Positions 865 through 26,487 of a stretch of DNA of 64,000 bases are shown here, in pieces. The stretch's first letter is position 1. Each line of letters opens with the position of its first letter. Source of the stretch: Lineolata rhizophorae. Its lineage: Eukaryota; Ascomycota; Dothideomycetes; Lineolatales; Lineolataceae. Where the stretch lies: contig MU001681.1 in NCBI GenBank assembly GCA_010093515.1, positions 259,988 through 323,987 on the forward strand, given 5' to 3'. Made by a program: the position numbers and the translations under genes. The notes under the pieces were generated by a model, which saw only the letters and a program-made list of their open reading frames with translations, was not told the DNA's origin and did not search any database.

Positions 865-918
865 CTTAGTAACGGGCGGCCAGGCTGGCCGGAAACTTCC
901 TCGACAAAGGTATAAAAG
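865..918 (+). promoter_or_regulatory. snRNA-type promoter of U2-like locus 1
   Basis: Three blocks match the promoter of the second U2 locus in order and nearly in spacing: CTTAGTAA at 865, GGAAACTTC at 891 and TATAAAA at 911. The counterparts are at 26142, 26170 and 26192. Distances between blocks are 26 and 20 bp here against 28 and 22 bp there. The block just after TATA (CCCC.CAAGG.CG followed by a pyrimidine run) is also shared. I infer a proximal element plus TATA arrangement of the snRNA type. Confidence 0.6.
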
Positions 919-964
919 GCCCCTCAAGGTCGCGCCCTCCAACCTTTCTTTTCTTCTTTTCGTC

Positions 965-1200
965 CCCATAAACCTAGGTGAGTGGTCCCCTTCCCCTGTT
1001 TAACAGGTAGGTGGTCCCTGCTCCCCCCCCCCCCCCCCTTCCTCCAGTTCTACACCCCCTTTACGGAGGAGGTGAAAAGGGTCTGGGTCAACCTTCAAAT
1101 GGCCTGGCAATTTTTGGCAATGGCTGGTGAGGCCTTCTGGGTTTGCTCATCCTCGCTGGCATCGTGTCGCTCGTATTGCACTATTTCGGGCTGATGCGAA
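965..1200 (+). ncRNA. U2 snRNA-related RNA locus with non-canonical 5' half
   Basis: The last 90 bases (1111-1200) match the 3' half of the U2 copy at 26342-26431 with 9 differences by eye. They start with the Sm-like UUUUUGG (1111-1117), form a stem-loop III helix (GAGG 1129-1132 with CCTC 1151-1154) and a stem-loop IV closed by GCATC/GATGC. The promoter and a downstream hairpin are shared too. The 5' half is different: no stem-loop I and no GUGUAGUA branch-point-pairing sequence can be found. In their place are a perfect hairpin CCTGTTTAACAGG (994-1006), a run of 16 C (1023-1038) and unrelated sequence. The start is inferred from the TATA spacing of the other copy. It could be a pseudogene with a replaced 5' end or a U2-derived RNA with another role. 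Confidence 0.55.
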
Positions 1201-1224
1201 CTATCTTTGGTCTCTTTTTCATCA

Positions 1225-1255
1225 TTCTTCGTGTCTGGTACGCGTGTCTGAAGAA
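1225..1255 (+). terminator. Conserved 3' hairpin of U2-like locus 1
   Basis: TTCTTC at 1225-1230 can pair with GAAGAA at 1250-1255. The same hairpin, preceded by TCATCA and followed by AGAA, lies at the same place after the other U2 copy (26457-26487). Inferred 3'-end formation signal. Confidence 0.45.
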
Positions 1256-1260
1256 GAAGT

Positions 1261-4200
1261 TCTTGGATCATCGTTCTGCATATTTAGCTAAACATTACTA
1301 AATCGATAATACAGATCAGATGCGTATCGTCATGGTGCTGCTTATATAGGTGGACAGGAGGTTTTGACGCATTTGTGGCGAAGTGTTTGTATACAAGCAT
1401 GCGCACCTTGGGTCTCTGTGGCCGTAGCTAGCAAATACCAACTAGGCCTATACATGACGTGATATAGCTAGCCCCTGATAGATGCATGAGTCCGTAAGAC
1501 GTGTGCTCATATACCACTTTCATGGGCGCGTTGTGGGCAATCTGATGGCTCATCAATCAGAAGGCAAGTAGTTAAGCACGTTGAATGTAAACTTTACTAC
1601 AACCTTAGGAGCTTATGGAAGGATAAATAAAGCTCTTCTTTTCTCTCGACATCCTGTAAGGGCTGTATGGTCGCATGCCTCATGGGAAGGATTAACCTCG
1701 GTGGCGAATATCGCCGCCTGAGCGGAACATCGGTTAAGACAATTGATCTAGGGCAGCACATTGTTCGGCCACTTTTTCTTTTCTTTTTTTTTTCTTTGGC
1801 AGGATACCAGCATGATAAAGAATTAGGCATGACAGAATAGGACTTGCTACGAAGTTTACCATGTTCGAATCTTGGTTTGCGGGCATTCTTCTATCTAGAT
1901 GGGCCGAAAGACTGGGTACACATACGGCTGAAGATGTGTGTGAACACTTTCTACGAATTAACATCCATCACCATCTATGCTCCGGCAACAACAGGCCTCA
2001 CTCAACTGGCTCTACGAAGCCCTCTAACCCGTTTTTGACGTAAGTTGTCTGTGCTTTTTTTTTTAACAAAGTGTGGCCAAACACGGACTTGACCTGACCG
2101 GGATCTCGTTTACACTTCAGAGATGGAGGCCGTTACTTTGCACACTGAACGACACAATAGCTGTGGTATGAGCCTCCTTTCATGGCTAAACGTCCGCTCA
2201 ACAAAACGGCTGTTCTGGCGCTTTCAAAATTGGGTGCGTGATACCTGATCTTCTTATGAGATCCCGATGCGTCCCACTCCCCGGCGCCTCACCAAAAGCC
2301 CTCGTGCTCGGTCTTCAGGTACGTTAAACACCCCATTTCCCTCGGAACGACTTTGATACCACACATCGTGATTTCCCAGGTCATTTGAAGAGATATAGTC
2401 CCTCTTCATACGGAGGAACCAAGGATTCGTTTTCGCCAAAGTCATGCACGCCGCGAATGATTCGCCACCGACATGCCGCGGAAAACATTCAAGCAACTCT
2501 AAGGGTTAAAGACCAGATAATTTGACAGGGATTGTGAGCATCGTCTAGTACGCGCCGAACAAATGAGTTCATATTGCCTTGGTTTATGTATGAGCCAGCA
2601 CATCTTTCCGCTGTTCGTCACCTCAAGTGCAACCGCGAAAGTCCCACGAGTCTATGACCATGCCACAAACCAACGCGCTGGTTCGGAAAATCCCATAATC
2701 TTTTGCAAAATGTCATTAAAAACTCGAGTCTAACCTAATAGCCCGACTACAAGACGGACACCTAAAGCAAGGGTCCTAGGGTACCTAAAGTTCTCAAATA
2801 TCTTCGGTCGCTGCACCTACATTACAGAAGTAAGCACATGGCCCTATTCCCAACACCCGGGTCTTTCCTAAGACAAAAGCGCGTGCTTCAGCTAAACTCA
2901 AAGGCTTTCTAAGTATATCCTGTAACGCATCCGATTAAAGACACCCAAATTAACGCAGACCGTTACATTTCCCCTAAAGCACCTTTCTCCTCTCGAGTCT
3001 CGATATCTCCTGCTATGATATCTTGGCAACTACAAAGACTGCTTCTGCTGAAGTCGAAGCCGGATAATCAGAGCGCGTGTAGATTCTAAACACGTCACGG
3101 TTCTCAAGTCTTATCTTCCCCGCAACCGGCAGCTTAACGATGCAGGGGATATATAAGATACTTGCGTATACTATAAGGGATGCGTAGGGCTTGCAAGAAG
3201 AATAGACCCTCAGGCTGTGATCTACTATGAACAACAACGGTAAGATTGAGAGACTAAGAACAGGGTCAAAAGTCGAGGAGAGAGAGTGGCAACGGAAAAC
3301 GGATTTGCCGCCAGAGCCACGCCCTTGCCTCTATGGTCATTGGTGGATTGGGGGATAATTGCGTATCGTATGCCGACCTTAAGCTTATCCCAGATCGCCG
3401 CTTCGAACCTAGAACGGTCGTTGGCTAAGTTCTTGACAGAACTGAGGTCCACGCTCTGCAGCTTCTCCCCCGTTTCTGACGCATGTTATTCGGATCCCAT
3501 ATCCAGAGTAAGTGAGTTTTACCGCAGTTGTTCTAAGCATAGAGGCTAATATAGTTTCTTATTGGGAGAACATCGAACATCTCAATGTCACAAAACTGGT
3601 AACCACGGGCTTTCGTAGCAACTGTGACGAAGCATACTGATTTCAGAAAGTGAGCTACTCCACGGTCTCCAACTCCTTACGTACGCGCCGTTCAGACACG
3701 TCTACTTAACGGATAGCTGGATAATGAGTAATGGAAAACCCGCAGACGCTTCATCTAGTCGGTGACCTCTAAGTGGTGGCCTTGATAGGTATCTGCCTTA
3801 TAACACCACCAAAAGCATACCTGTATATACGCATCCGCGTACTCCGAAACTTCAACTTGGTAACGGGTTAAGCACTTTCGAAATGTTAGGCGAGATACTA
3901 GTTTTCCAGTTTACACCTTAGACACGAAGATGGCAAGAACGGAAGTACAGTACCGATTAAAGTACGGATCTTCTCTCCTATGACCCAAACATTAGCCTCA
4001 GACTGAACGCATATATCCTTAATTACACCATGCTAAGACTGTCTAGAGTCCTAGAGGCAAGCCTCCGTTCTCCGCCACACCTCACCACCCATCAATCTCA
4101 AGACCACATGGCATACCGCCAACTCCAGTCCATACACCAGTTCACCTTTGGCTAAAACACCTCTACAACCTCCACGCATACGAAGGAAAGAGAAGTCGCA

Positions 4201-4370
4201 TTTCGCGTACAGCTGCATGCTAACCTCAACATATTTACAATTTCTGCTTCTAGGCATATCGACTCAACAAAACCGGCTGAGGGGAAAAAGAAATGAGAAG
4301 GGAAACATTATTAGGGTAGTATAATTCGTAAGCCAGCATAAGAGTATCACAGGGAGCGTTGTTGAACACC

Positions 4371-4405
<35 letters not shown>

Positions 4406-4802
4406 ACCTCCCCCCAAAGAAGGCTAGAACGCGCGCGCACATTTAAGGGTCTCAGAACCTCAACAAACCCCTCCGACACTTCGTCACACCACCAAGAGAT
4501 ACTTCCCCGCACCTCCCGAAACGCTTCATTCCAAACTACGCGGCAACAATCCGAGACACCAAAAAGGACATAAAAATATCCAAGGCCGGCTCCACCCCGG
4601 AGCTCCATGCACACACCTGCCATTACCAGACCTCGACCGCACCGACTCCAAGACTTTCAAACACGCAACACTGCCAACCGCAGCGATAACCGGCACCATA
4701 CGCTCGCATCGAACTCTCTCTGTCTCTCTCGCGGCCAAACAGCCAGCTTTGCAACCCCCTGAAAAAAAAGGGAGCCATAATCCGTTCCCCTTGTCCCGTC
4801 CC
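1261..4802. other. 3.5 kb intergenic stretch without a recognisable gene
   Basis: I see no coding region, RNA gene or intact repeat family here. Open frames are short (87 codons or less in 1261-4260) and overlap one another on both strands. Composition is less GC-rich than around the genes. The segment from about 4540 to 4802 should contain the 3' untranslated part and terminator of the ERG3 gene, which is read leftwards. Confidence 0.45.
4372..4405. repeat. Homopolymer of 34 C
   Basis: An uninterrupted run of 34 C (G on the minus strand) lies about 400 bp downstream of the ERG3 stop. The length may be affected by sequencing error. Confidence 0.85.
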
Positions 4803-5973
4803 TCACTGCGTCTTCTTCGGCTCACGCTCCCCGGGCAAATACGTCCGATCGTCCTCGCCCTCGACCTCCTTGACAATCTTCTCCGTCTCCCTAACCTGCC
4901 TCTCCCACTCCTCCTTGCCCATCTTGTCCTCGCGCCTGAACAGCTCCTCGTTGGGGCGCCTATAGCTGCCGCCCAGCTTGTCCCACAGCGTGGTGAACTG
5001 GCCGTAGTTGTAGTTGAAGTAGAGGTGGTGCATGGTGTGGCAGGCGGCGCCGTTGATGACGGGGTTGTCGGCGACGTACTCGCCGTCGTGTATGAGCACG
5101 GTCCAGACGTTGATGAAGACGAAGAGGACGACGTAGGCGAACTTCTGGAGCGGCAGCACGAAGGGGAAGAAGTGGTAGGGCACCGACTGCAGGAAGCCGT
5201 CGAGCGGGTGGAAGGCGTGCGACGCGTACGGCGTCGGCATGATCCACTTGTGGTGCGGCTTGTGCAGCGTCCGGTACACGCGCGGGTGGTGCAGCCCCCG
5301 GTGAATCCAGTAGATGAGGAAGTCGGTGAAGGCGATGAAGAGCGGGAACTGCACGAAGTTGTACCACAGCCCGGGCCCTTGCGCCGTCGTGTCGTACATC
5401 CTGGAGTAGCCGCGCACCTCGGCCAGGAAGATGGGCGCCGTGAAGACGGCCATGCCCGGCAGCGCCCAGCTGGCCTGCGATATCTCCTGCCGGATCTGGT
5501 CCTTGAGGTACTTGGGGTGGTTCACCGCCGTCTTGTCGAACACGAAGATGTACGAGAGGGTCGCGCAGACGTAGTAGACGACGAGGCCGAAGATCCTGGG
5601 TGCGTGCGCAAGTCAGCTTGTTGGTTCAACTGGCCCCCTTGCTATACCGCTCGGTCAAGCGCCATCCGTCCACCTACCAAGTAATCAAGTACAGCGACAC
5701 AAACTGCCTCCACACATTATCCCGATCCCACTGACTCATCCACGCGTGATCCCCCGGCGCAAAGCTCAGATAGTCGCTCGCGGGGTTGAACTCCCACTGC
5801 TTGTGTCCCTGCATCCCGGCCGAGCCTGCAGCGCTGGGCACCTCGCGCATGCTTGAGAACGTGGCATTGGCAGTAGCAGCCGCGGCGCCCGGCCCGTGGT
5901 AGGGCGCCGGGAGCAGCGCCGCGTATGCGCGGTCGAAGAGGAAGGTGTCGGCGACCTCGAGGACGATGTCCAT
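4803..5973 (-). CDS. ERG3: Sterol C-5 desaturase (Erg3)
   Basis: Two exons, 5973-5678 and 5595-4803, joined across an 82-bp GT-AG intron (5677-5596) that splits a Trp codon; the product has 362 residues. It belongs to the fatty-acid hydroxylase/sterol desaturase superfamily, non-haem di-iron enzymes of the ER membrane. The three histidine clusters are intact: HRGLHH (197-202), HKPHH (210-214) and HTMHH (285-289). The last is followed by the LYFNYNYGQFTTLWDKLGGSY stretch typical of Erg3, which separates it from Erg25-type methyl oxidases. In the family this enzyme puts the C5-C6 double bond into episterol late in ergosterol synthesis. Hydrophobic segments flank the clusters. The start is the first ATG; the N-terminal 90 residues are variable and rich in Ala and Ser. 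Upstream lies a 5.4 kb region without genes. Confidence 0.93.
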
Positions 5974-8900
5974 GATGGCTGCGGAGCTTGCGCGGTGCTA
6001 GCTCTGCCTCCTTTTTGTTCGGTTTGGCAACGAAAAGTCAATTGAGCGGTCAGAGCAACAGCACGGAAGCAATTGAGCCGAAGAGACGCGGGTGCGCAAT
6101 GCGTCGATGCCGATGGGCGGCGTCGTGGTTGTTGGGGCAAGAAAGGCACGAAGGGAAGCGGCTAAGGTGACTGGAATTGCAGGGCTGGCGCCGGGAAAAG
6201 TGTTCCCAGGGACGACGACGGAATACGAGCCGCTGGTTTGCCCCGCCAGGGGCTTTGGCGAAGGCGGTGAAAGGCGCGACGGGAGAGACAGAGCGCAAAA
6301 GAATAATTTCCTCAGGTGCACCGGCGTAGGAGCTCAATCAACCAGATCGCCAGACTGCCCCGCGACAGACAAAGAAAGGAAGAAGAGCAAGCGCTCAAGC
6401 GAGTTCTCCCAAAGCCCGGAACAACCTCCCCTTCACCCTTTCCGCCCTGGCGACGTTCCCAAATATCCGCGCACCTAACTCCGAACCCGAGCGTCGTCAC
6501 CGCCTTCGCGGGTCCCTCACCCCCCGTCCAATAGACTCGCCACGTCCCTGCAGCAGCCTCTCGGCGCGCGGCGGCATCGCACCAACCGCTGCGCGCGAGC
6601 CGGGCCTCGAACGGCGAACCCCTGGCGGCGCCCGCGGGACGCGCCATCTGATAGGCGCGGCCCCGCTCTGCTCTGCGCCGGAAGCTGGGCTGCCGGATCA
6701 GCCCACGCGGATTCGGGCAACGGCCCGCTGGGCTGCCGGGCCCGGATGACCCGCGTACCTATGTGGTGGTCGGGAGCACGCTACTCGAGGCAGTTCGCGA
6801 TGACCGCCTGACGGGAGATCAGGGGGAAGCTGGAAATGAAGAATGGGCTCGTCGATCGGTCAGTTGGGCCATCGCGCGCTTGCAATCGCCCGTCGTGCGC
6901 TGTGCCTCGTCCGTAGTATCTGGCGGGCTGCGAGATGGCTCGCCAAGGGCGTCGAGCGACGCTGGCATCTCGAGTCTCATGAGACAAAAAGTGAACAATC
7001 AAATGGCTCTAATTTCCATTTCTCCATCGTTCCCACCATTACCTGAGTACCTGGTTTAGAAAAGAATCGCCTTGCTACTGTCCTTGTCCTTCGTGCCAAA
7101 TCCTTTTGTGCGTGTCCTAGAGTCGTAATACTGGTTCAAGATCCAGGGCCACTCCAATTGCCACTATTTCCCTTCCGCGTCGCCATCGAACCTCGTCGTA
7201 GTTTCAACACCATGAACTATTCACCATAAACGAGCCTCTCCACCCTACCTCACACTAAACAATTCACGCACCGCAGCATACTACCCAACTCCCCCGAGCA
7301 TCCGCATATTCGATAAGGAACAATGATTCAGATACCTACTTACCTAGCTATCTACTCCCTACCATCATAGTACCAACCCCGCCTCATTCCATCAACCACC
7401 AAGTCCTCACCATCACCAACCCTGACCACCAAGCTGGAACCAAATTCTGAGTCACTAGCGGCCATAACCCATACGTTTGCCTACCCCCTCTGCTCTTCGC
7501 CCACTCACCACCACAACCTTCCAATCTCTCTTTTCCCCACACGCACCTATTTTAAGATTTCCCAACACCCCCAGGGCAAAAAGCCAAGTCGGCAAGACAA
7601 GAGCCTCAGGGCTACCCGTCCCATCAAATCCTTTGCGTCCGTCCCACCCAACCGACCGTCCATCCAGCCGTTCCATCCAACACAAAAAGTATAACACCAC
7701 GATCCTAGCCAAAGGAACACAGAAATATTCAAAGGAGAAAAAAAAAGGAGGAGAAATAGAAAGCGCACGAAGAAAGAGGGAAAAAGAACAAGCCAAGGAA
7801 ACACCACATCAACACTGTGGACAACGGCAGGAGTAAGAGAGGAAAAAAAGAAGAAAAGAGACACTCCACACGACTCACCAAACCCACAACGCACCCCGCT
7901 CAAAACCTCTCCACGGGCATTTCACTTCTCCAACACGCATATTCGTCCTCTCTTTCTCCAGCGGTGAGGAGTGGCATACCATGGCGATATTGGAGGCAGG
8001 GTCGGGGGCTGGCAGCATCGCTTTTTGTGACGCATCTAAGGTCCACGGTAGGGTTCGTAGCTGTCGAAGGCAAAGAGGACTGCGTTAGCGCATCTGACTC
8101 TCTCAAGCATCTCATCGACGCGGCACGGTCTAACGAGCACGCACGGCCGAGGACCCAATGTCGAAAACGAAATGGTAAAGGAAAGAAGAAAAACAGCGGA
8201 TCAAGTAGAGAGCCGAGAAAGAAACGAGATGCGAAAAAAACGACCAAAACAATACAACGAACAAAACCACCTCCCTCCGTCCCCAATGGGAGGTAGAGGT
8301 TGTGCCGAAGGGGAGGATGGGGAGGGGGAAGTGTTGTGTAAGGGAACGGATGAACAAGGACCCTTGCACGGAAGATGCGGAGTAGATGGCCATCCTCAAC
8401 AACCCCAACTGCTCCGTGTTTCCTCGCTCCTTCCATTCCTTACCCATCACCACACCAAACCCCCCCCCCCCCTTCCCAAGCCGATCGTCCGTCCGTACAT
8501 GCGGCCCATCCCGCACCAGCGCACCGCGCCAGCACACGCATGCAAGGCGAGAAAATCGAGTTCACACCGTTGCTCGTCCCGTTGCTCTCTCCGCGCAAAA
8601 GATCCAAGCCCGCAAGAAACAAGTCCCAAGCAGGCAAGACACACGCGCTCATCCACCCACGCTAGCAGGTCAACGGCGCAAGCTTGCCCGAGAAGGAAAG
8701 CCAACCCAGCAGCCGCAACGCGCTCCTCGACGTACGAGGCAGAGCAGGAGGCAGAGAGAACGCTTCGCGGACCCAATCCATCTTGGAGCGGGGACTTGCT
8801 TGCTCAGTCGAGTAATCGAGTACTCGGTGATCGACGCCGTGCGCGTCTCCTCGCGGGAGCCGGCTCCCTTCTCTTCTCGTTGGAGGGATCTCGCATCTAG

Positions 8901-11404
8901 CCGGCTCCGCGCCGCTGACCGCCGCCAAGCTTGCCAGTTCCTTGCGGGTCCGCGCACCAGACAAGCCGACAAACATTGTCCTCATCTCTCGGCTCCGTAC
9001 CTCTATTGGCTCCGGTCCTTCCTCGGCTCCATCCCAGCTTCGCCGCCTGCTGTTACGCTGAACGCCTCCGCAAAGTCAAGACCCGCGCAAGCCAAGCTGT
9101 CAAGCAAAGCAAAGGGAGAACGCATGCGGGTAAGACGGAGGGCGAAGAGCGCTAGGCAACGGCTAGGCTAGCCCAGGAGGGTCAATTAGGTGGGTATCTC
9201 ACCGCAGCAGCATTGCGGCGTAGCCAGCGAGCCATCCAGAAAAGCAACCTCTGCGCGCTTAGACTAGGCAGGAGAGCAGCCAAGAAGTGCCCATACCCGT
9301 TTTGACCGTGCCCGTGCGCCGTCTACCGCTCGCTTCATCCTAGACTGGCTATTGGCCATTGGCCGCCAGCTACGCAGCGTTGACGACGCGGCTGGGTAGT
9401 CCAAGAGAGAAGGAAACAAACAGCAACTAGTGATGTGCGTGCAAGCCCGTCTCGATCGCACGCGTCGTCACCCAGCATCCAGCACCCTCCAGAGGGGGGA
9501 GGGGAAGAACAGTCCACAGACCTAGCTTGCTCGCACTGCAAAGGATGCCGGGTTTACGGCGCTGGAGGGAGCAGGGTAGATCCCGCAAAAGATGTGGGGA
9601 AAAGAAGACAAGGAGATGAGCGAGGAAGATGGACGACAGAGATAAGCCCGCATATAGCACAAGCATCGACTTCTCCTCCGACCCAGAAACAGGGATAGAG
9701 GACTATCGAGCCGGCAGTTAACTAGGGACCTGTGGGCAGCGAGGACAGGTGCTCCATAGTACCTGTGCTGGACTCTTGCTCGGGGAGAAAAACAAGCAAG
9801 CAAAGCCAACAGGGCAAGGAGCCCGGAATTAGGCAGCAAGGACCCAAAGACCACGCAAACACGCCCCTGCTGCTGTTTCCTTCCCTCCCAAGCCCGCATA
9901 CCGCGTGCCGTTGTCAGACGGACAAGGGACCGTGTGCATAGTCTGGCGTGGGGGAACTCGTACGGAGACCCCTACTCCCTCCTTTCCTTAACTCAATACC
10001 AGCCACGGCGTCTAGAGTGGAACCCGGGTGAGAAAAGAACGCCGCCTCGTTCCCTCCCTGTGCCGCCATACAGACGAGATAAGCGGGCCAAGGCAGCACG
10101 CACGAAGCACGAAGCCATATCTCGCATCCGCTTTTGCCTCGCCGCCGCCGCCGCCACCATTGGCGGGGATCCCCTTGACCCAAGGCGAAACGAACCCCCA
10201 GATAATGCAAGACCTCAAATGGCGTCTGGGTATTGGTCGTACCAGTGCCGATCCCCTAAGCAGGGCGCCACGGGAGCCACGTCTCCTCCTTCGCCTAAGG
10301 GGGTGTACATCCGTGCCCGTGCCCCCTCTCCCTTCCCGCGTAACTTTCCGGTGGCAGGGGAGTCGTCGAGGTGGAGGCCTCTGTGCGTCTGCCTGATAAG
10401 AGCAACTGCGGAAGGTCGGACACACAGCCATGTCTTGCCCCACCAGCTAACTAACTAGCCGGGGAATGGAAAAGGAAAGGCTGAAGACGCCTGGAAGGGG
10501 GCGGGGGGGGGGGGGGGGTAGCCAGGCTTGATGGTAGCGGTGGGAGACTTGTCGAAACCCCCCTTGGCAAGAAGGAACAGGACGTCCATGCATCCATTTA
10601 TTTGGCGTGAAGGAAGAAGCCGTCTACCAAGCCAGCCATGGCAGACAGAAACGAACGCCGTGGCTGAAGATGGAAACGCGGGATGCCTCTAAGCATTGGA
10701 ATACCGGAGTCCGAGCTTGGTTGATTGGTTGGTTTGTTGAGAAGGAGAGAGGCTACCTGCCACCTCGCCTGTATCGTCCCACGCCGTGTAGTAGCCACCC
10801 ACTCGGTCTCGTGTAAGACGGAACAACGCATGTTCCACCTAGTGACTCCCCCAAGTTCGACCGAACATGGATGACGAGATGGAGATCGACCTTGCAGCGT
10901 GGGGTTGTCGAAGAAAGTGTTGCGAGCTCTTTGATCTCTATAGCAGCCCAAAGAAGACCCAGAATCCTCAAACGCCGCCGGCAATGACGGGAGGGCTGGC
11001 GTGGGGAGATCCGTGGAGGTGGCTCACACGAGAGCTCAAGGTGCGTGGGGAGGCCGACCCAAGGAGAAAAGAGCTTGACATCGATAGGTGTTGAAAGGAG
11101 GCTCGAATACTAATGACAAGCGATGCCGGGCAGGGCTCCCCTGGCCGCCTCTGGTTGGAAGGCCACACTAGATGCTCGTGTGGGGAAAGCAACCTGACAA
11201 GCAAGCCACAACATAACACAGAATCCGCCAAACCTTCCCAGCAGTGATGGGGCATAGCGTCCCAATGTCGGTCTAGAACCAAGAACAGGAAAAACAGAGC
11301 GTGGGGAAACAGTGGGGGGAACAGTAACACGTGCGCAGTAGATCAAGCCACAAAGAACGTGACCAAGAGAGAAAGAAAAAAAATTTAAAGAACGCAGAGG
11401 AATG
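5974..11404. other. 5.4 kb gene-free region between ERG3 and TUP1
   Basis: Both neighbours are read leftwards, so this holds the TUP1 3' end and the ERG3 promoter. I found no coding region: the many open frames (for example plus-strand 8386-9171) are of low complexity, overlap on both strands and show no domain. Notable composition: purine-rich runs at 7735-7870 and 8160-8250, 13 C at 8460-8472, 16 G at 10503-10518. Confidence 0.5.
10503..10518. repeat. Homopolymer of 16 G
   Basis: A run of 16 G within the gene-free region about 1 kb downstream of the TUP1 stop. Confidence 0.8.
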
Positions 11405-14400: not shown

Positions 14401-14852
14401 CCGGGAAACGTGCTGGATGCTACCATGTGCGATTGCGCCGGCTGCAATGTAGCTTGCCATCGGACGCGATTACTTAGCCAAGTAATGGCACCAAAGCAAC
14501 TACCAACTGCATTCGGATACGCCCGGGCTGGCCGTAGCAACGCAAACAGGGTCGCCCAAGATTGTGTTGGGCCCAACGAGACAAGCATTTGCTGCACAGA
14601 TAAAGAGACGATGGGCGCGACGACGTTGGTACATTGCAAAGGGGTAAACAGGTAGCCAAAGCAACCAGCAAAGAAGCTGTGAGGGATGTGCGACGAGAGG
14701 GAAAACAGAAAAGACGAATGGGACTTACAAGACCGCTCAAAGTCGGTCGCGCGCGCGTTCTCCTGGTCGAACTCGGCGCGCACATGATCGAGGAGCTCAT
14801 TGAGCCGATTGTTCGGTGCCGCGGGCACCATTCCGCGGTGAGCACCATACAT
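11405..14852 (-). CDS. rcoA: Tup1/RcoA-type WD40 transcriptional corepressor
   Basis: Seven exons keep reading phase throughout: 14852-14729, 14231-14150, 14044-13641, 13230-12659, 12566-12105, 11958-11826 and 11508-11405, giving 626 residues. Residues 1-90 form the helical Tup1 tetramerisation/Ssn6-binding domain (starts [20 protein letters not shown]; later [20 protein letters not shown]). A linker rich in Pro, Gly and Ala follows (about 90-285), then a seven-bladed WD40 propeller with repeats ending in RVWD, RLWD, KMWE and QFWD and closing on SGDMRARIW. In fungi Tup1 with Ssn6 represses many genes through histone deacetylases and nucleosome positioning, and affects development and carbon repression. 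The introns of 497, 410 and 317 bp are long for this window. The last exon ends in a short tail (RYVDHPKPV) whose first codons contain a perfect GTATGT donor, so an alternative 3' end is possible. Confidence 0.93.
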
Positions 14853-17800: not shown

Positions 17801-19254
17801 TCTAGCGGTGAACGGGGCAGCAAAGGCAGTGCCTCGTTTTGGAGCCCTCTTTTAGACTTTCTTGGTCGTGGTACTAGATAATAAGCCCGATGGCGACGCG
17901 CTTTGTTTAGAAGCTTTTCGGAAGATGCTGGGCATACTCTTGTATGATTTTGTATGAGGATGGAAGGGTACGAGGTGCGCCGCGACGCGAGCGATAGGGG
18001 ACCCTTGAAATGTCTAGGATGGAAAATGACCACGAAGAGTGAAAAGAAGCGGGCCACGTCTTCTACCGCTGCCTTTTCAGCTGGCCTGAAGACAATAATG
18101 ATTGCGCGCCTCATTGATAGTTGACGATGAGAAAGCTTGACCGGCCAAGACGAGCAAGTGAGGCCACATTGCTACGTACTTCCTCCCCACGCGTCCCTTT
18201 CCCTACCCGCGACAACGCCACTGTTGCCGAAACAGACCCCACGAGAAACCCTTCTTTCGAAGACATCTCCGTCCTCAATACTGCACGCTCCGCGCAGAGA
18301 CCCGGGTACATCTTCCCATAGAACTGCCGCTGTGTACAGAGGGTATCATGACGCGTCCGCCTCTCGCCCGCCCCATCGCTCGCGCCCGACGAGCGACCAA
18401 CCTCCACCAACGGCCCGGCCACGCGCCCGCGGCCCCGTCGCTTGCTCGCCCGCTTCATCGGCGCCGTTTCCGAACGAGGGGGACCGCCTGCGCCACTTTT
18501 GCTCTCCGCCAAGGGGGCCAACGCGAAGCGCCTGGCGACATCTATTTTGCTTGCTGAACAATGCAATCCCCCTAAGATCACGCGCCACACGCCACGCGCC
18601 ACCGCCCGCTTCCCGGCGCCCGCTAGATGGGCTCGGTACTAGGTGGGCGCCGCCCGCTAGATGGGCTCGGTACTAGGTGGGCGCCGCCCGCCGGGGCGGT
18701 CCGCTTGGCGGCACAGATGCCGGCGGAGCGGCAGCGCAGCGCGTACGTAGTAGTACACGGACGGGCATCACAGGTGGTGTGATGTCCCTGAGCCGCCCCC
18801 CCGATCATCGAGTCGTTTGGGCCGTTCAATGAACGCGCCGGAAGGGCAGACCTGGATTTTTGGGTCAGCGGGCAGGAAAGGCGGGCAAGCCCGCTAATTC
18901 GAGCAGCGATTGACCGGGACCGTTTACCAAAACGTGTCCAGCCAGGCGGGGCTCGGGAGCGATGCGAGGCTGAGTCTTGCGGTCCGCGGCGCGCCGCCCG
19001 GGCGTGGGGCCTTTGGGCTTGCGTCCCCCCGGTTGGTAGTATGTTCTATTCTGGCCTTCCAGGCCCGGTATGGAGTGGCTCCTCGTTTTTGCCTTGCCGA
19101 TGTCGTGCGCGGTGCGTGGCAGCGTGGGTTACGCCCGCGCGGCAGCCTTGCCCCTTCCCCGGCCTTGCTGGTCTGCTGGTGGGTTGACCCGGGCATCGGG
19201 GGCGGTCTGAGTCGCCCGTGGGAACGGAGGAGCCAGGGAAGACATTCCACCACG
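14853..19254. other. Intergenic region between divergent TUP1 and ccg-9
   Basis: The first kilobase should carry the TUP1 promoter and leader. No gene is supported. Visible structure: purine-rich ATGGAG-like repeats at about 15775-15845, a TACGGAGTA motif at 16963-16971, a tandem duplication at 18617-18684 and strongly GC-rich blocks at 18350-19250. Confidence 0.5.
18617..18691. repeat. Perfect 34-bp tandem duplication plus 7-bp partial third copy
   Basis: The 34-bp unit at 18617-18650 (begins CGCCCGCTAGATGGGCTCGG) is repeated without change at 18651-18684 and its first 7 bases start again at 18685. It lies about 1.1 kb upstream of the ccg-9 start codon. The lack of any difference between copies suggests a recent duplication. 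Confidence 0.9.
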
Positions 19255-19316
19255 AGGTGCAGCGGTGCAGCGGTGCAGCAGCGCGCCGATCCCCTCTGCA
19301 GTATAAAACTGCGAAG
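19255..19316 (+). promoter_or_regulatory. Core promoter of trehalose synthase gene
   Basis: TATAAAA at 19302 sits inside a perfect inverted repeat, GCAGT-ATAAA-ACTGC. Just upstream is a short tandem array of GTGCAGCG-like units (from 19257), and CCCCT (19291) with AGGGG (19315) are stress-response-element-like. The predicted transcript start leaves a leader of about 430 bp. Confidence 0.45.
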
Positions 19317-19641
19317 GGGGCGGGCCGGCAGGGCTGTCTGCTTTCCTCTCCACAGCTTTCAATGAATTGCTTTATGTCTAACAGCATACACTACGCTACG
19401 ACCTAGACTAAACGCACGACTAGAATTCTTGTCTCTTGCTTACCTCTTTTGTTTAATATTAGACTTCGGTCTCCTCTACTAGACGGCTATCTAGAGTTCC
19501 GGCTTGTTGTTCAGGGGTGGCGACCTAGATCTCTCTTCCCGGTTGTATCAAGACGTCACTCTTGTTTCATACTACGCAGGTCATTGGACCCTCGACGCTT
19601 ACCCGAAGGGGCAACGAGCTCTAGCACCTTCCAGTCAACTC

Positions 19642-19667
19642 CACACACACACACACACACACACACA
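19642..19667. repeat. (CA)13 microsatellite in the ccg-9 leader
   Basis: Thirteen CA units, 95 bp upstream of the start codon and probably transcribed as part of the 5' leader. Confidence 0.85.
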
Positions 19668-19761
19668 TCTCTACCAACCCTCAACAACAGGCAACACAGC
19701 CTGATCTTCCTTTTCGACGACTACCTTGACATCCTCAGACGGCCTTCGCACACACAACACG

Positions 19762-22534
19762 ATGTCAGCAACAGACGACCTAAATCTCGACTTCAACGCA
19801 GCAGTGCAGCGCGTTCACCACCGCCGCAAGACGTGGCCCGCGACTGACCTCGTTGACGTCGAGACCATCCGCCATGAATTCAAGGCAGCAAGCTCCGGAA
19901 GGCAAATGAAGCGCATGCAGCGCGCTCAGGAGGAGGGCCATCCCGTCAAGTTGCAGGTAGGTGTGCTTCGACAACTTTCACTTCACCTTTACGTTCTATG
20001 GAACGCTTCTGAGTCACGATGCCTATGACTGGCTTCGATGACGAACGGGTATTCATTTGCTCTTCTGCTATGTTTCTCCTAAACTCCTCCAATCCACATC
20101 CTGTTCGATGACCTCTCTCGCGCATTGCAATCTACACTGTATTCTACGGATCACACTGTATTTTCGAAGCTTTGGAGACGCAATGAGCTCGAATAGGCCT
20201 GTTAAAGTGCGTTTAGAGGTTTCCTTTCATGATTTGATCTGGCAGCTTCCAATCTTGATCGTCGATACCTGTTCTACACTCTCCAGATCCGCTTTAGCTC
20301 CTATGTCTCTTGTATATCAGCTCCGTTCGTTGTCACGCTATCTATGATTCAAGCATATTATCTAATTGAATAACGCGCTAACCAAACTTCTAATTTCTAG
20401 CCCCTCTTTATGGGTATTTCTGCCGCCGAGTCCAACAGCACCCACGTCGACATTGGATTCGCCTCTCATGATGGCACCTACAGCATCGACTTCGCTGTGC
20501 ACACGCTGCCCTCGGGACGGGCTTCGTTCCACAATGGCACGGCCATGCCCGAAGAGCAAGCGACCCAGTTCGCCGACTACTTCATCACCAAGATGCACGA
20601 GTACGAGGAAGAGCACTTGTACAAATTTGTGGCAGCCGGCGTGCCAGCGCGCCTGGTCAAAGTCATACCGCAGCTGCCGAGCCGGCTGTGGGCGGAACTG
20701 GACGTGGTGCCCATGGTATTCGAACGGGGACTGGAGAGCGACGAGGAGGAGCAGCTGGGCGTCGACGAGGAGGCGGATAGCATGGCGCGCAAGGCGCTCA
20801 TGTTCTTCGGTCCCAACAACTTGCCCCGCATCCAGGTCGGGCGCCGCAACGAGGTCGAGGTGGACTCGAACGGCCATGCGCTCATTTCGAGCGTCGAGCA
20901 GTATAGGCAGTCATGCACCGTGGAGACTTGGGAGGCGACTATGAAGATCGTGGATCAGCTCAAGAAGCATGGAACCAAAATCGCGTTCTTCAATACGACG
21001 CCGCAGGGCGGAGGGGTGGCGCTGATGCGTCACGCATTGATTAGGTTCTTGAGACTGGTTGGAGTCAACGCCAAGTGGTAAGTGTGCTCATTGGGATGTG
21101 GTGTACGAAATCTAGCTTGTGATGTGTTGGACGTGTCCTACGAGTACGATGTATTCGTGGTCGCGATACCACCAAACATACACAAGCCAGACTTCAACGC
21201 CAAACATATACCCATCTTACGATTATGTACTTACGCCGACAACTTCCAGGTATGTTCCCAAGCCGAAGCCTGAAGTCTTCCGCATTACAAAGACAAATCA
21301 CAACATCCTGCAAGGCGTGGCTGCGCCGAGTGAGCGTCTCACCCTGGCTCAGCAAGACATTCTCAACACCTGGGCGCACCAGAATGCTACGCGCTACTGG
21401 ACGCAGCATGGTGGTCCCCTGGCGTCTCGCGGCGACGGTGGCGCCGATGTCATCATCATCGACGACCCGCAGATGCCGTCGCTTGTTACCATCGCGAAAC
21501 AGATGGACGCGACGCGCCCCGTGCTGTTCCGGTCACACATCCAGGTTCGGGCGGACCTAGTAGATGCGGGTAACAACCCGACAGCCGAGGTGTGGGACTG
21601 GTTGTGGCACTTCGCACGGCACGCTGATGTCTTCATCTCGCACCCGGTGCGGGCCTTCGTGCCGGCATGCGTTCCCCGTGCGGCCGTGGCCTATATGCCC
21701 GCGACGACGGACTGGCTGGACGGGCTCAACAAGCAGCTCGACCCCTGGGACGTCAGCTTCTATTTGGCGGAGCTGAACGAGCAGGCCCGCAACCAGCACA
21801 TCCCGCTCCTACAGTATCCGGCGCGGCCCTTCGTCGCGCAGATCGCGCGCTTCGATCCCTCCAAGGGCATCCCCGACGTGCTCGCCGCTTACGCGATCCT
21901 GCGCCGCGAGCACATGCGCGGCTGGCCCGCGGAGAAGACGCCGCAGCTCGTGGTGGCGGGCCACGGCGCCGTCGACGACCCGGACGGCACTGCCATCCTC
22001 GACCAGACGCTCAGCGCCATCGACCGCCAGTACGCCGACCTGGCCGACGACATCGTGGTGCTGCGCCTCGGGCCGTCGGACCAGATGCTCGGCGCCATCC
22101 TGCAGAGCGCGCGCGTGGCCCTGCAGCTCTCGACCCGCGAGGGCTTCGAGGTCAAGGTGTCGGAGGCGCTGCACAAGGGCGTGCCCATCGTGGCGACGCT
22201 GGCCGGCGGCATCCCGTTGCAGGTCGAGCACGGCAAGAGCGGGTTTCTGGTTGAGCCGGGGGACGCGAAGGCCGTGGCGGGATATCTGGCGCAGCTGTTT
22301 GGCGACGAGAGCCTGTGGGAGAGGATGAGCGAGTATGCGCGCACGCATGTCAGCGACGAGGTGGGCACCGTTGGAAACGCGCTTGCGTGGCTGTATCTGT
22401 GCGAAAAGGAGTCGAGGGGCGAGAAGGTGGTGCCGGAGGGGAGGTGGGTGGTGGATATGGCGCGGGAGGAGACGGGCGTGGAGTGGACTAAGGGGGAGAC
22501 GAGGCTATCGAGGAATGGGACGGTGACTGGGTGA
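19762..22534 (+). CDS. ccg-9: Trehalose synthase/phosphorylase, GT4 family (CCG-9 type)
   Basis: Three exons, 19762-19956, 20401-21077 and 21250-22534, with introns of 444 and 172 bp; the second intron splits a Trp codon. The product has 718 residues. The N-terminal third resembles Neurospora CCG-9 (starts MSATDDLNLDFNAAVQRVHH; later HVDIGFASHDGTYSIDF). The C-terminal half is a GT-B fold family-4 glycosyltransferase: FVAQIARFDPSKGIPDVL, then the E-x7-E motif in STREGFEVKVSEALHKG and the VATLAGGIPLQVEHGKSGFL nucleotide/phosphate-binding stretch. Family members make or phosphorolyse trehalose using glucose-1-phosphate; the Neurospora gene is clock-controlled. The protein is cytosolic, with no signal peptide. 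The first intron is long, so a small extra exon there cannot be excluded, although the direct join aligns without a gap. Direction of the reaction in vivo is not visible from sequence. Confidence 0.9.
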
Positions 22535-23967
22535 GCGAGAGAGGAAGCAAGTACTTGGGTTATAGACTGGCTGGCGTGTTGAGTAATAGTGATTGTAGAT
22601 TGGGTGCGGATGTTCGGATAGACTGGTAATTGTTGAGTTGTAGGGGGTGGAGTGTTTTCCTAGGGCCTATGAGAGGACAAATCTGCTAATATTGGATGGT
22701 TGTGGGCGTCGATCTGGTGTAAGATCAGGCGTTGCGGCGCTTATGAATGATGGGAAGCATTATTTCCTTAAACACCGGCATATGGGTAGGAGGCGTTGGG
22801 ATCAAAAATTAAGGACTAGTCTTGTATGAGTAATAAAGCATTGGTATCTTCTCCCTCACTGTTTTTGACGTGACCTTTCTTGAGCTGCTCCTACCTTCCC
22901 ACGTGATTACGTATTATCATTCGCATCACCGACTTTCCAGTATTCAAGATGCCATGGCAGCAACAGTACGGAGTGTACGATGATATTTGGTGAGTATGAA
23001 ATTGATATGAAATGAATAGTCTATACCATGAGAGCTAGAATGACTTCTCCTTCACTTGAAAACGCTCTAGATGGACATGATTGGCACTTTATGCTTAATT
23101 TGCGTCTTCCAGCCAGTGCGAAAGTCAGAATATTTTCCCTTGGTGGCGAATGGCGGAAGTGCAGCAGCGTTTACGAATTGCCGTTTCTGGCAGTTGTGGG
23201 GAGGCCATGATGATGGAATGAGGGGCGGAGGCTTGGCTAGTGAGGGGCAGCAGACCGCGTCCGACAATCAGCCAGGCGTCTTTAGGGGCCCTGAACAGCC
23301 CACGTTCTCTCCCGTTTGATTGTTGGGGGGGCTAAACCTGGAAAAATGAGGCGCATGGGAGAGCCGATCGTCAGCATCCCCTTGCATTGTAGTAGCGCTC
23401 GGGAGCCGCGCAGGGCCCAGCTGCAGCGGAACAATCCAACTCGACCAGAGGTGCAGCGGAAGAATTGACCTCCTTTGCCGCCGTGCGCCAAACAATTCTA
23501 GCATGCACTTCGTCGTAGAGCTCAGGCCATTGGGCTTCAAAGCTCCACACACACACGCCGGCGCCCACATTCTTTATCCTTTGCACGTTCCGATCGCTGG
23601 CCGAGCGGAAGAGCAACAGCCTGCTTTGTCGCGGTTCGCGCCGGCCAAGCGGCCGTGACCCTGAGCTTGGGATGGACAGGACTAGGACGGCCCCACCGCG
23701 CCTAAACGGTTAAATGGGAAAAATAGGATAGGCCTCCGCACTGGGGCAACAGCTGCCACCCTATGAGACACGCTGAAGCTGCTTGGTGGTGCGCCAGGTA
23801 CTCGCGGTCGGTGGATATCGTGAGCATACTTAAAGACGAGGTTGCTTCTTACCTTTTGAACTGACAATTGCAGGATATTTGCAGTGAACTCGCACCGGCT
23901 TCCCGTCAACACCTGGAACACACTCTCTCATAACGACTACACAAATCTAGAGTTTTCAACAGCAACT
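22535..23967. other. Intergenic, ccg-9 3' region and GH43 promoter
   Basis: No supported gene. A TACGGAGTGTA string lies at about 22967. A GC-rich block at 23270-23690 has an open but featureless frame on the minus strand and is not called. Confidence 0.5.
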
Positions 23968-24945
23968 ATGGCCTCCGACGACAAGCAGCCCCTCATCACC
24001 AACATCTACACGGCGGACCCGTCCGCCCACGTCTTCAATGGCAAGCTATACATCTACCCGTCGCACGACCGCGAGACAGACATCAAATTCAACGATAATG
24101 GCGACCAATACGACATGGTAGACTACCACGTCTTCTCGCTGTCATCGATCGACGGCCCCGTGACGGACCACGGCGTGGCCCTTACCGCCACCGACGTGCC
24201 TTGGGTCTCCAAGCAGATGTGGGCCCCCGACGCCGCGACCAAGAACGGCAAGTACTACCTGTACTTCCCGGCGCGCGACAGCGAGGGCGTGTTCCGGATC
24301 GGGGTGGCGGTGGGGGACAAGCCCGAGGGCCCTTTCACGCCGCAGCCTGCGCCCATCAAGGGCAGCTACAGCATCGATCCGGCCAGCTTCGTCGACGACG
24401 ACGGCCAGGGGTATCTGTACTTCGGCGGCATCTGGGGCGGGCAGCTGCAGCACTGGGCGGAGGGCAAGTTCAACATCGAGCTGCATCGCGAGACGGGCGA
24501 GCCGACCGAGGGCCCGGCGCTCATGCCGTGCGTCGCGAAGCTGACAGACGACATGCTCGAGTTCAAGGAGCCGGTCCAAGCGGTGCCGATCCTGGACGAG
24601 AACGGAGAGCCCATCGCCGCGAGCGACCACGATAGGCGCTTCTTCGAGGCCGCCTGGATGCACAAGTACAACGGGAAGTACTACTTCTCGTACTCGACGG
24701 GCGACACGCACTACCTGTGCTACGCGATTGGGGACAGCCCCCTCGGCCCCTTCACGTACGGTGGCAGGATCTTGGAGCCGGTCAAGGGCTGGACCACACA
24801 TCATTCCATCTGCGAGTTCCAGGGCAAGTGGTATCTGTTCCATCATGATGCCTCGTTATCGGGTGGTGTCGACCATTTGCGGTGCGTCAAGGCCAGGGAG
24901 CTGTTTTATGACAGCGAGGGGAAGATACATACGACGCCACAATAG
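23968..24945 (+). CDS. Glycoside hydrolase family 43 protein, probably intracellular
   Basis: Single exon of 325 residues. It has the five-bladed beta-propeller layout of GH43 with the three acidic catalytic positions in place: general base D17 in YTADPSAHVF, the pKa-tuning aspartate D137 in SIDPASFVDD, and the general acid E227 in RFFEAAWMHK. Family activities are beta-xylosidase and alpha-L-arabinofuranosidase; which one applies here cannot be told. The start at 23968 (MASDDKQPLITN) places the first catalytic Asp at residue 17, as usual for single-domain intracellular members. An in-frame ATG further upstream (23884) would add 28 polar residues but no signal peptide either. No carbohydrate-binding module is attached. 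A cytosolic role on imported xylo- or arabino-oligosaccharides is an inference. Confidence 0.88.
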   Translation: MASDDKQPLITNIYTADPSAHVFNGKLYIYPSHDRETDIKFNDNGDQYDMVDYHVFSLSSIDGPVTDHGVALTATDVPWVSKQMWAPDAATKNGKYYLYFPARDSEGVFRIGVAVGDKPEGPFTPQPAPIKGSYSIDPASFVDDDGQGYLYFGGIWGGQLQHWAEGKFNIELHRETGEPTEGPALMPCVAKLTDDMLEFKEPVQAVPILDENGEPIAASDHDRRFFEAAWMHKYNGKYYFSYSTGDTHYLCYAIGDSPLGPFTYGGRILEPVKGWTTHHSICEFQGKWYLFHHDASLSGGVDHLRCVKARELFYDSEGKIHTTPQ

Positions 24946-26141
24946 AGGCGGAGAGTGCTAGAAGGCGGTGCATTGACATATTTCAGGCTTGTACATAACT
25001 TTTCATTTAGGTAGCTTCTCCATAAAATTTATGGATGATGCCTGTGATACTCCTCAATTGGTGATCCGTGGCCGCATTTCTACCGTAGATTGTTGAACGC
25101 TGATGCATCGTAGCTGGGCTAGTTGCCATTAAGCTTATGTTGTCCTGTCTAAATTGTTGGATCTGTCCCATTCTAGTCATAGAAATGATTTTGTTTCCAC
25201 ATAAACTACTCTGTCAATGATACCACTGCGACAGACTAAATCTTTTTACGGGGCATCAGCTCGAGCACTTTGCCACATGAGATCAATGCGTACACCTCCA
25301 AAATTGTAAAGCGTAATTTGGTCGTACTTGATCACGGAGACTTGCCTATTTGTGACGGTTCTACTATAGCATCCATCGCAGTGTAGTGAAAATTCTAAAC
25401 GTTCTTTACCTTAGGGCATTTTGGTTCCGTCAATCATCCACTATTTTCACCACCCGCTCGCCATACGTATTTGATACGACACTCCCAAAAGTGGGAATAA
25501 TAATGTGCTAAAGCAAAGGAAGTAGGAACCATTGCGGGTATCTTGCATCAACGCATGTTCGTTAGATATTTCTATACATAAATGGCACTTTCGCGTCTAT
25601 CCTGGAGCCAAGATAAGGGACGTAAATAGCTTCACGACTAACATGCCTGCTTAGCGTAGAATCGCGCGGCAGCACGGGTAGACGGTCCATTGTGCATCGC
25701 CAAATCAGAGCACCCCACGCAGAAAGCAAAATAACTCAGGAGAGTCAACTTCTATCAAACTGACATCCATTAAGACATATGGTCTTGGGAAGAATTTCAG
25801 TGCTTCTGTGGAACAATCGTGAAAGCCTCATGTTCGACATCGCCGTGAATGTGCGCAGTAATTAGACACAAGGCGTCGTCCCACCCCCACCATGGATTAG
25901 AGACTCACCTCAACATCTCAAATCGCCGATGCCGGCCTCTCACGGGGCCAATCACGGGTGAATCACCTTTGCCATCGCCCTGTTCGGTAGGCAGCAACGT
26001 TCTAGACCCTTCGATGCCTTCACCCGGGGCTCACGTAACCTTGGAAACGGCGCCAACTTGACGGAAGCGAGTATTGAGAGCATCACGCCCGAATAGGAAC
26101 GGGCACGGCCCCTCCTACTATCAGGAAGAAACTGTCACGAC
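24946..26141. other. Intergenic between GH43 gene and U2 locus 2
   Basis: AT-richer than the surroundings. No coding region or RNA gene recognised. Confidence 0.5.
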
Positions 26142-26198
26142 CTTAGTAAGAGGCCCTAGCTGAGTTCTTGGAAACTTCGTCGGGAAAAGTATATAAAT
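26142..26198 (+). promoter_or_regulatory. snRNA-type promoter of U2 locus 2
   Basis: CTTAGTAA at 26142, GGAAACTTC at 26170 and TATAAA at 26192 match the promoter of the first locus in order and spacing. The TATA element is about 52 bp upstream of the inferred RNA start. Confidence 0.65.
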
Positions 26199-26243
26199 CC
26201 CCCCAAGGCCGCCCAAACTTCCCTTTCTTTTTTTCTCTTCTTC

Positions 26244-26431
26244 AGCTCTCTCTGCCTTTTGGCTTAGATCAAGTGTAGTATCTGTTCTTTCCGCCGCTTA
26301 ATCGCTGCGTACGGGCCTACGGGTCTACCTGACGTATCGTGTTTTTGGCAACGGCTGGGGGGGCCTTCTGGGCTTGCTCATCCCCACTGGCACTGTGTCG
26401 CTCGTATTGCACTATCTCGGGCTGATGCGAA
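26244..26431 (+). ncRNA. U2 spliceosomal snRNA
   Basis: The strand carries the U2 landmarks in order. Stem-loop I is GCC-TTTT-GGC (26254-26263). TTAGATCAAGTGTAGTATCTG (from 26264) contains the branch-point-pairing GUAGUA (26275-26280). A stem-loop IIa follows, CGCCGC/GCTGCG around TTAATC, then a further hairpin closed by TACG/CGTA. The Sm-like UUUUUGG lies at 26342-26348. Stem-loop III is closed by GGGG (26360-26363) with CCCC (26382-26385), and stem-loop IV ends in GCTGATGCGAA. Length of about 188 nt is normal for fungal U2. In the spliceosome this RNA pairs with the intron branch site. The exact ends are inferred. Stem-loop IV has a C-A mismatch (GCACT against GATGC) where locus 1 keeps full pairing, so I cannot be certain this is the only or main U2 gene. 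Confidence 0.82.
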
Positions 26432-26456
26432 GAACAAACTGTTTTTTTTTTCATCA

Positions 26457-26487
26457 TTCTTCCTACCTCGGGTAGGTGTCTGAAGAA
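26457..26487 (+). terminator. Conserved 3' hairpin of U2 locus 2
   Basis: TTCTTC (26457-26462) pairs with GAAGAA (26482-26487). A smaller hairpin, CCTACC-TCG-GGTAGG (26462-26476), lies inside. A run of 10 T just upstream (26442-26451) is absent from locus 1. The position and outer stem are shared with locus 1, suggesting a 3'-processing element. Confidence 0.5.

What the first reader, a model, noticed from the sequence alone, without database searches (positions are those of the whole stretch)
965..26431. Two U2 snRNA-type loci that share promoter, 3' half and 3' hairpin but differ in the branch-point-reading half
The loci at 965-1200 and 26244-26431 share three promoter blocks at matching spacing, a 90-base 3' half (9 differences by eye) and a downstream hairpin. 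Only the second has stem-loop I and GUAGUA. In the first this part is replaced by a CCTGTTTAACAGG hairpin, 16 C and unrelated sequence. U2 without the branch-pairing segment could not do its known job, so the first is either a chimeric pseudogene or an RNA that keeps the U2 protein-binding half for something else. A weak resemblance (GTGAGTGGTC at 978 against GTGTAGTATC) leaves open a highly diverged 5' end.
Basis: partly seen in the sequence, partly recalled or inferred. Interest (0 to 1): 0.75.

Follow-up and report, generated by a model that had tools for sequence, protein, structure and literature searches.

The report
Headless U2 snRNA in fungal family
A fungal gene keeps the promoter, protein-binding tail and end signal of the splicing RNA U2 but has lost the half that reads introns; it sits in an unusually large and varied family of U2 genes, so it is either a recently broken copy or an RNA kept for something other than ordinary splicing.

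Summary
Locus 1 (promoter 891-917, Sm site 1109-1117, stem-loops III/IV 1123-1199, 3' hairpin 1217-1256) is a U2-type gene whose 5' half (about 963-1108) has no detectable U2 content; locus 2 (26242-26437) is a full U2. In the whole genome (30.97 Mb, fungal) locus 1 belongs to a dispersed family: 16 loci with both halves were found and 2 with the 3' half alone. Locus 1 has a perfect family promoter, an Sm site like the Rfam consensus and every 3' stem, with two two-sided compensatory changes. The other headless copy (L090) has no TATA box or family promoter and damaged stems; decayed copy L024 keeps 15 of 26 pairs. So locus 1 is not a long-dead copy. The data do not separate a recently beheaded gene from a maintained headless Sm RNA.

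Two neighbouring facts may matter more. Of 14 well-formed U2 genes, 7 carry GAAGUA in place of GUAGUA, with covarying stems but no detectable matching CTTAC intron class. Two U1-like genes (L074, L091) have likewise lost the U1 recognition end. Expression and conservation in other species could not be tested here.

The parts
891..917 (+). Locus 1 promoter: upstream element GGAAACTTCCTCGACAAAG followed by the TATA box
   Evidence: 0 mismatches to the family pattern; 28 genome hits against 0 for the mirror control
963..1108 (+). Locus 1 replaced 5' half; the start is inferred from the TATA-to-start distance of the other copies (44-66 nt)
   Evidence: no U2 signal; no copy elsewhere in the genome by DNA search apart from promoters (E up to 10, simple repeats skipped); no fold signal (z 0.10)
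978..987 (+).
   Evidence: 9-base run pairable with the U1 5' end counting G-U (6.3% of shuffles as good)
978..1047 (+). Intron-like arrangement GTGAGT...TTAAC...CAG, 70 nt
   Evidence: in 0.9% of 5000 dinucleotide shuffles; removing it would not restore any U2 5' element
995..1007 (+). CCTGTTTAACAGG palindrome / short hairpin
   Evidence: sequence; paired in the predicted fold
1023..1038 (+). run of 16 C
   Evidence: sequence
1109..1117 (+). Sm site AATTTTTGG
   Evidence: matches the Rfam U2 consensus aAUUUUUgg; 14 of the 16 two-halved copies have GTTTTT and 2 have ATTTTT there
1123..1160 (+). U2 stem-loop III with inner hairpin
   Evidence: 10 of 10 outer and 4 of 4 inner pairs formed; two two-sided changes against the family consensus, GC to UG and GC to AU
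1162..1199 (+). U2 stem-loop IV (by analogy the U2A'/U2B'' binding site)
   Evidence: 12 of 12 pairs of the locus 1 fold formed
1217..1256 (+). 3' hairpin element shared by the snRNA genes of this genome
   Evidence: pattern search, 1 mismatch; 31 hits against 4 for the mirror control
26170..26196 (+). Locus 2 promoter
   Evidence: 1 mismatch
26242..26437 (+). Locus 2, full-length U2 snRNA; GUAGUA at 26275-26280, Sm site 26341-26348
   Evidence: Rfam U2 99.3 bits, model 1-192
26449..26488 (+). Locus 2 3' hairpin element
   Evidence: pattern search, 0 mismatches; sequence

Best explanation
Locus 1 is a transcription-competent member of a dispersed, fast-evolving U2 gene family in a filamentous fungus. 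Its 5' half (stem-loop I, branch-pairing stretch, U6-pairing stretch, stem-loops IIa/IIb) was exchanged for unrelated sequence, probably by the same kind of recombination that gives other copies different 5' and 3' histories. Shown: promoter, Sm site, stem-loops III and IV and the 3' hairpin are intact, and the 3' stems have diverged while staying paired. Inferred: it is transcribed from its own promoter, receives an Sm ring and the U2A'/U2B'' proteins on stem-loop IV, and, having nothing to pair with branch sites or U6, cannot act in ordinary splicing. I think it slightly more likely than not that the RNA is made and persists as such a headless U2-like particle, at most a competitor for U2 proteins or Sm assembly, than that it is an unexpressed relic; whether it has been selected for this is open.
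For: Perfect family promoter; Sm site like the Rfam consensus; 26 of 26 pairs of stems III/IV with 9 substitutions against the family consensus (0.4% of random-substitution runs keep as many; 2.9% in the stricter version that drops the one pair absent from the consensus); two two-sided compensatory pairs; native stems III and IV are the minimum-energy fold; 3' hairpin kept. The contrast copies are damaged: L024 15 of 26 pairs, promoter 7 mismatches; L090 17 of 26 pairs, no TATAWA and best promoter match 10 mismatches. End branch in the 3'-half tree 0.20 against a median of 0.15 and 0.49 for L024 (most branches of that tree are unresolved). Separate histories of the halves: L020/L021 97% alike in the 5' half but 74% in the 3' core. 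Two U1-like genes have lost the recognition end too (L074, L091).
Against: No RNA data. The 5' half shows no fold signal (z 0.10; whole RNA z 0.17) and carries a 16-C run, as neutral sequence might. The pairing evidence may date from before the 5' half was lost. The strict p value (2.9%) is modest and two intact-looking promoters were lost in copies that keep both halves (L009 11 and L023 7 mismatches), so the promoter pattern alone does not separate live from dead. No relative in another species could be examined.
Confidence: 0.48

Rival explanations
1. Recently beheaded pseudogene: a working U2 copy lost its 5' half by deletion or recombination so lately that promoter, Sm site, 3' stems and hairpin have not yet decayed. 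It has no function; any transcript is degraded by RNA quality control.
For: The 5' half looks neutral (z 0.10; 16-C run; no copy elsewhere). Family turnover is visible: L024 decayed, L090 a headless relic. In human cells many unstable snRNA variants are transcribed and left to the exosome (passages of PMC7328512).
Against: It must be recent: the 3' half differs from its closest copy at 13 of 95 positions and all its pairs are kept.
Confidence: 0.4
2. Highly diverged but still working U2: the 5' half evolved beyond recognition (GTGAGTGGTC for GTGTAGTATC, CCTGTTTAACAGG for stem IIa), perhaps with an intron at 978-1047.
For: L023 shows that a copy can keep GUGUAGUAU while most of its 5' half changes. 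The intron-like arrangement is in 0.9% of shuffles.
Against: Profile score no better than shuffles (25 of 150 as high); no 5' covariance match; no match to GUAGUA or GAAGUA; splicing 978-1047 out would leave no U2 5' element either. The candidate branch A lies over 40 nt from the CAG, further than the 5-30 nt sought.
Confidence: 0.05
3. A regulatory decoy or a donor RNA: the 5' half carries a 5'-splice-site-like stretch that binds U1 (as in a U1 sponge or a spliced-leader-type RNA), held in an Sm particle by the U2 tail.
For: Longest run pairable with the U1 5' end is 9-10 in locus 1, L074 and L091 and 5-6 in all 16 two-halved U2 loci; shuffles as good 6.3%, 2.2%, 0.8%; 2.1% of random window 90-mers reach 9. 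Duplex with the U1 5' end 14 of 300 shuffles as good.
Against: Noticed after the fact. With Watson-Crick pairs only, the runs of locus 1 and L091 are ordinary (72% and 79% of shuffles as good; L074 1.9%), and the mirror probe reaches 8 in locus 1. Eight duplex targets were tried. In L091 the stretch lies in a hairpin with its own former 5' end. Trans-splicing of this kind is not known to me in fungi (recalled).
Confidence: 0.05

Closest known systems
U2 spliceosomal snRNA (Rfam RF00004)
   Same: Promoter type, Sm site, stem-loops III and IV, 3' hairpin; 3' half 86% identical to the nearest copy, locus 2
   Different: No stem-loop I, no GUAGUA or GAAGUA, no U6-pairing stretch, no recognisable IIa/IIb
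Human snRNA variants and pseudogenes (passages of PMC7328512)
   Same: Variant copies beside working ones, some transcribed but unstable
   Different: That human copies arise by retroposition or duplication and tend to stay recognisable at the 5' end is recalled. Here the copies share only the gene cassette: no flank similarity at E up to 1e-3 among the 17 loci, and the 3' half is the part kept
Nucleomorph U2 snRNAs without stem-loop IV (passages of PMC6461891)
   Same: U2 RNAs that lack one end
   Different: The mirror case: they keep the branch-pairing 5' half and lose stem-loop IV
Dispersed 5S rRNA genes of filamentous ascomycetes (Podospora anserina, 72 full-length dispersed copies; passages of PMC2441463)
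   Same: Small RNA gene cassettes scattered through the genome
   Different: There 5S rRNA; that paper reports 12 spliceosomal RNAs in all (its table says 14 snRNA genes), against 7 U1 and 16 two-halved U2 loci found here

Membership tests
U2 snRNA | Branch-pairing sequence GUAGUA | tested here: not met
   absent in locus 1
U2 snRNA | Stem-loops I, IIa, IIb and U6-pairing stretch | tested here: not met
   no Rfam, family-model or profile match over 963-1108
U2 snRNA | Sm site followed by stem-loops III and IV | tested here: met
   AATTTTTGG 1109-1117; 26 of 26 pairs
U2 snRNA | snRNA-type promoter of this genome | tested here: met
   0 mismatches
U2 snRNA | Assembly with Sm, U2A'/U2B'', SF3 proteins | not testable with these tools
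   needs RNA immunoprecipitation
Pseudogene | Loss of constraint on remaining structure | tested here: inconclusive
   3' stems intact (p 0.004, or 0.029 in the strict version), but a recent loss would look the same; L024 and L090 show decay
Pseudogene | Not expressed | not testable with these tools
   no RNA data held
U12 snRNA | Covariance match | tested here: not met
   no U12 match in locus 1 at E up to 5 nor in the genome at E up to 1
Spliced leader RNA | Short 5' exon and 5' splice site before an Sm site | tested here: inconclusive
   GTGAGT at 978 before the Sm site; GTRAGT lies in the first 35 nt of 2.0% of shuffles
Spliced leader RNA | Leader found at mRNA 5' ends | not testable with these tools
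   no RNA data held

The most novel reading that the evidence does not exclude
This fungus runs a diversified set of U1- and U2-type particles: ordinary U2 (GUAGUA), a second class of seven U2 genes with GAAGUA that would best fit CUUAC branch sites or something other than ordinary introns, and headless U1- and U2-derived Sm RNAs (locus 1, L074, L091) that keep protein-binding parts but not the intron-reading part and act as competitors or regulators of the spliceosome.
Probability: 0.12. Interest if true: 0.85.

Novelty: new variant of a known kind. Interest (0 to 1): 0.6.

Why it matters
The branch-pairing GUAGUA of U2 is held to be nearly universal (recalled). A genome with seven well-formed U2 genes that carry GAAGUA instead, beside seven with GUAGUA, would let one ask directly whether U2 particles can be specialised by their branch-pairing sequence. 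Locus 1 and the U1-like cases ask the complementary question: what a cell does with an snRNA that keeps its proteins and loses its recognition end. Both need RNA data first.

Tried and rejected
Diverged U2 5' half: rejected as unsupported (profile, models). Intron in the 5' half: the arrangement exists but restores nothing. U12-like start: no U12 match. Source of the 5' half elsewhere in the genome: none found (E up to 10; that search skips simple repeats). Structured new 5' domain: z 0.10, and -0.15 without the C run. Small peptide: the 3' half of U2 holds a short frame in the other copies that I looked at too; the changes that I compared by eye against locus 2 do not favour third codon positions (by eye, not counted by a tool). 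CTTAC introns to match GAAGUA: GTAAGT...CTTAC...CAG 99 hits against 128 for the mirror control, while CTNAC gave 836 against 414. Of 87 distinct 5' sites that I read by eye in the truncated list, CTAAC 42, CTGAC 26, CTCAC 12, CTTAC 7 (my notebook entry 2 has 44/25/11/7, which was a miscount; it also says 16 promoter hits belong to U2 genes and locus 1, where 14 is right, and calls the U5 hit dubious, which one search does not bear out). De novo intron pentamer counts were too noisy to use. Pairing of the 5' half with other snRNAs: U2 GUAGUA-class 5' end 7 of 300 shuffles as good, U1 5' end 14 of 300, whole U1 279, U6 62, U6 variant 204, U4 80, U5 125, GAAGUA-class U2 58; eight targets, so nothing stands after correction. 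A shared GTCAACCTT shortly before the Sm site in locus 1 and L017/L019 was seen by eye and not pursued. No relatives in other species could be searched: the genome has none in the set, and the other collections offered are bacterial, archaeal, viral or plasmid (tool descriptions; I did not scan them). Literature: (listings) showed no report of a U2 with GAAGUA or of a U2 3'-half-only RNA in a fungus; the library holds only open-licence papers.
Full report
What is there. The window lies in a 30.97 Mb genome of 48 contigs (window = C12:259988-323987). It is fungal: a fungal-specific transcription factor domain is found in the window, and introns of the GTAAGT...CTRAC...CAG type stand out. I take it for a filamentous ascomycete by recall; no tool named it.

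Locus 2 is a full U2 (99.3 bits). Locus 1 matches U2 only from the Sm site to stem IV (Rfam model 99-185, 32.1 bits, below the gathering score). A model built from 14 U2 copies of this genome raises that to 100.2 bits but still places none of the 5' half apart from a forced 12-base end. A 5'-half profile scores locus 1 no better than shuffles (25 of 150 as high). The 5' half is not found elsewhere in the genome by DNA search (seven further hits, all at promoters) and shows no fold signal.

The family. Rfam U2 finds 17 loci, 16 over the cut-off; locus 1 is the 17th. A search for the 3' hairpin shared by snRNA genes (31 hits, 4 for the mirror control) led to an eighteenth, L090, again with a 3' half only. 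For comparison, U1 gave 7 loci, all below the Rfam cut-off but all with ATACTTACC; U4 1, U5 1, U6 one over the cut-off, one just below it and one chance-level match. The flanks of the 17 loci share nothing at E up to 1e-3, so only the cassette from promoter to hairpin is repeated. Of the 28 promoter hits, 13 belong to two-halved U2 loci and 1 to locus 1; 2 to U1 genes; 1 to L074; 2 to new Sm-type RNA candidates (L081, L085); 9 are unclear. Three two-halved loci (L009, L023, L024) are not among the hits (11, 7 and 7 mismatches).

The 14 well-formed copies behave as structured RNAs: 97.1% of pair cells are standard, 23 cells changed on both sides, 0 of 500 shuffles as high for four of five measures and 2 of 500 for the fifth. 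The relatedness caveat of that tool applies.

The halves have separate histories. L020 and L021 are 97% alike in the 5' half, 74% in the 3' core and 51% beyond it; other pairs range from similar to less extreme. This is why a copy with a foreign 5' half is not surprising in this family. The 3'-half tree is poorly resolved (12 of 14 inner branches open).

Is locus 1 dead? Its promoter has 0 mismatches, its Sm site is AATTTTTGG, and its 3' hairpin has 1 mismatch to the pattern. Against the consensus of the 15 copies other than L024 and itself it has 9 substitutions in 95 positions, and all 26 pairs of its fold are formed, including GC to UG and GC to AU changes on both sides. Random substitution keeps as many pairs in 0.4% of runs; leaving out the one pair that the consensus lacks, and that favours locus 1, in 2.9%. 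By the same strict measure the 15 others range from 0.05% to 46%, so locus 1 looks like them. L024 keeps 15 of 26 pairs, as expected without constraint (95-96% of runs do as well). L090 keeps 17 of 26 (5 gapped), has no TATAWA in the 388 bases held before its Sm region and no promoter match better than 10 mismatches. Thus locus 1 is not an old ruin. But a loss of the 5' half late on its branch would leave the same marks, so function is not shown.

Mechanism. By established knowledge of U2, stem-loop IV binds U2A'/U2B'', the Sm site the Sm ring; the 5' half pairs with branch sites and U6. An RNA with the first and without the second can form part of a particle but cannot read introns. I commit to an expressed headless particle at 0.48 against a recent pseudogene at 0.40. 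Expression, particle assembly and any competition are inferred.

Parallel cases. L091 (C9:747539) matches Rfam U1 over its whole length at 40.7 bits, below the cut-off; the U1 end ATACTTACC is replaced and a hairpin GCCACCTTGGGGGTAGGTGGC lies there by eye. Its TATA box is present, but its promoter has 4 mismatches to the U2-type pattern. L074 (C12:369746) has 1 promoter mismatch and by eye shares only about 20 bases around the Sm site with U1; Rfam finds nothing in it at E up to 0.5; its body folds better than shuffles (z -3.08). Both, and locus 1, hold a 9-10 base stretch pairable with the U1 5' end where the 16 two-halved U2 loci have 5-6. This was noticed after the fact, fails with Watson-Crick pairs alone in two of three, and the mirror probe reaches 8 in locus 1. 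I keep it as a lead only.

GAAGUA. Of the 14 well-formed copies 7 have GUAGUA and 7 GAAGUA; L023 keeps GUAGUA, L024 has GCAAUA. By the known pairing the changed base faces the nucleotide next to the branch A, so GAAGUA fits CUUAC rather than CURAC. No CTTAC class of introns shows above the mirror control (99 against 128), with the limits that only GTAAGT starts and CAG ends were counted. What these genes are for is unexplained. I found no report of such a class in the open-licence library (listings).

Papers: passages of PMC7328512, PMC6461891 and PMC2441463; abstract and outline of PMC4053861.

Noticed in passing
L012, L013, L014, L015, L016, L020, L021 (C8 and C13 of the genome, outside the window): Seven of 14 well-formed U2 genes carry GAAGUA in place of GUAGUA, with covarying stems, and no matching CTTAC intron class was detected.
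   Followed up: partly
L023 (C12:327473-327660, about 3.5 kb beyond the window end): A U2 copy that keeps GUGUAGUAU while the rest of its 5' half is largely replaced; 48.2 bits.
   Followed up: partly
L091 (C9:747539) and L074 (C12:369746, minus strand): U1-like genes that have lost the ATACTTACC end; the first keeps the U1 body, the second only the Sm region.
   Followed up: partly
L089 (C12:373067 region): RNA gene candidate of about 400 nt with a TATA box, several tandem units of roughly 40 nt, an Sm-like site and the snRNA 3' hairpin; no Rfam match at E up to 0.5.
   Followed up: no
L081 (C9:788757-788972, minus strand): RNA gene candidate of about 115 nt with promoter (3 mismatches), strong hairpins on both sides of an Sm-like site and the 3' hairpin; Rfam finds in that locus only the neighbouring U2.
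   Followed up: no
L085 (C13:961924-962666, plus strand): Long RNA gene candidate of about 600 nt with promoter (3 mismatches), 3' hairpin and several stretches like GAAGTATCNTCTAA that recall the U2 branch-pairing region.
   Followed up: no
L074, plus strand (C12:370370): RNA gene candidate of about 300 nt facing away from L074, with the 3' hairpin and no Rfam match.
   Followed up: no
L057 (C17:441854): Second U6-like gene (43.6 bits, cut-off 44) that lacks one A after ACAGAG.
   Followed up: no
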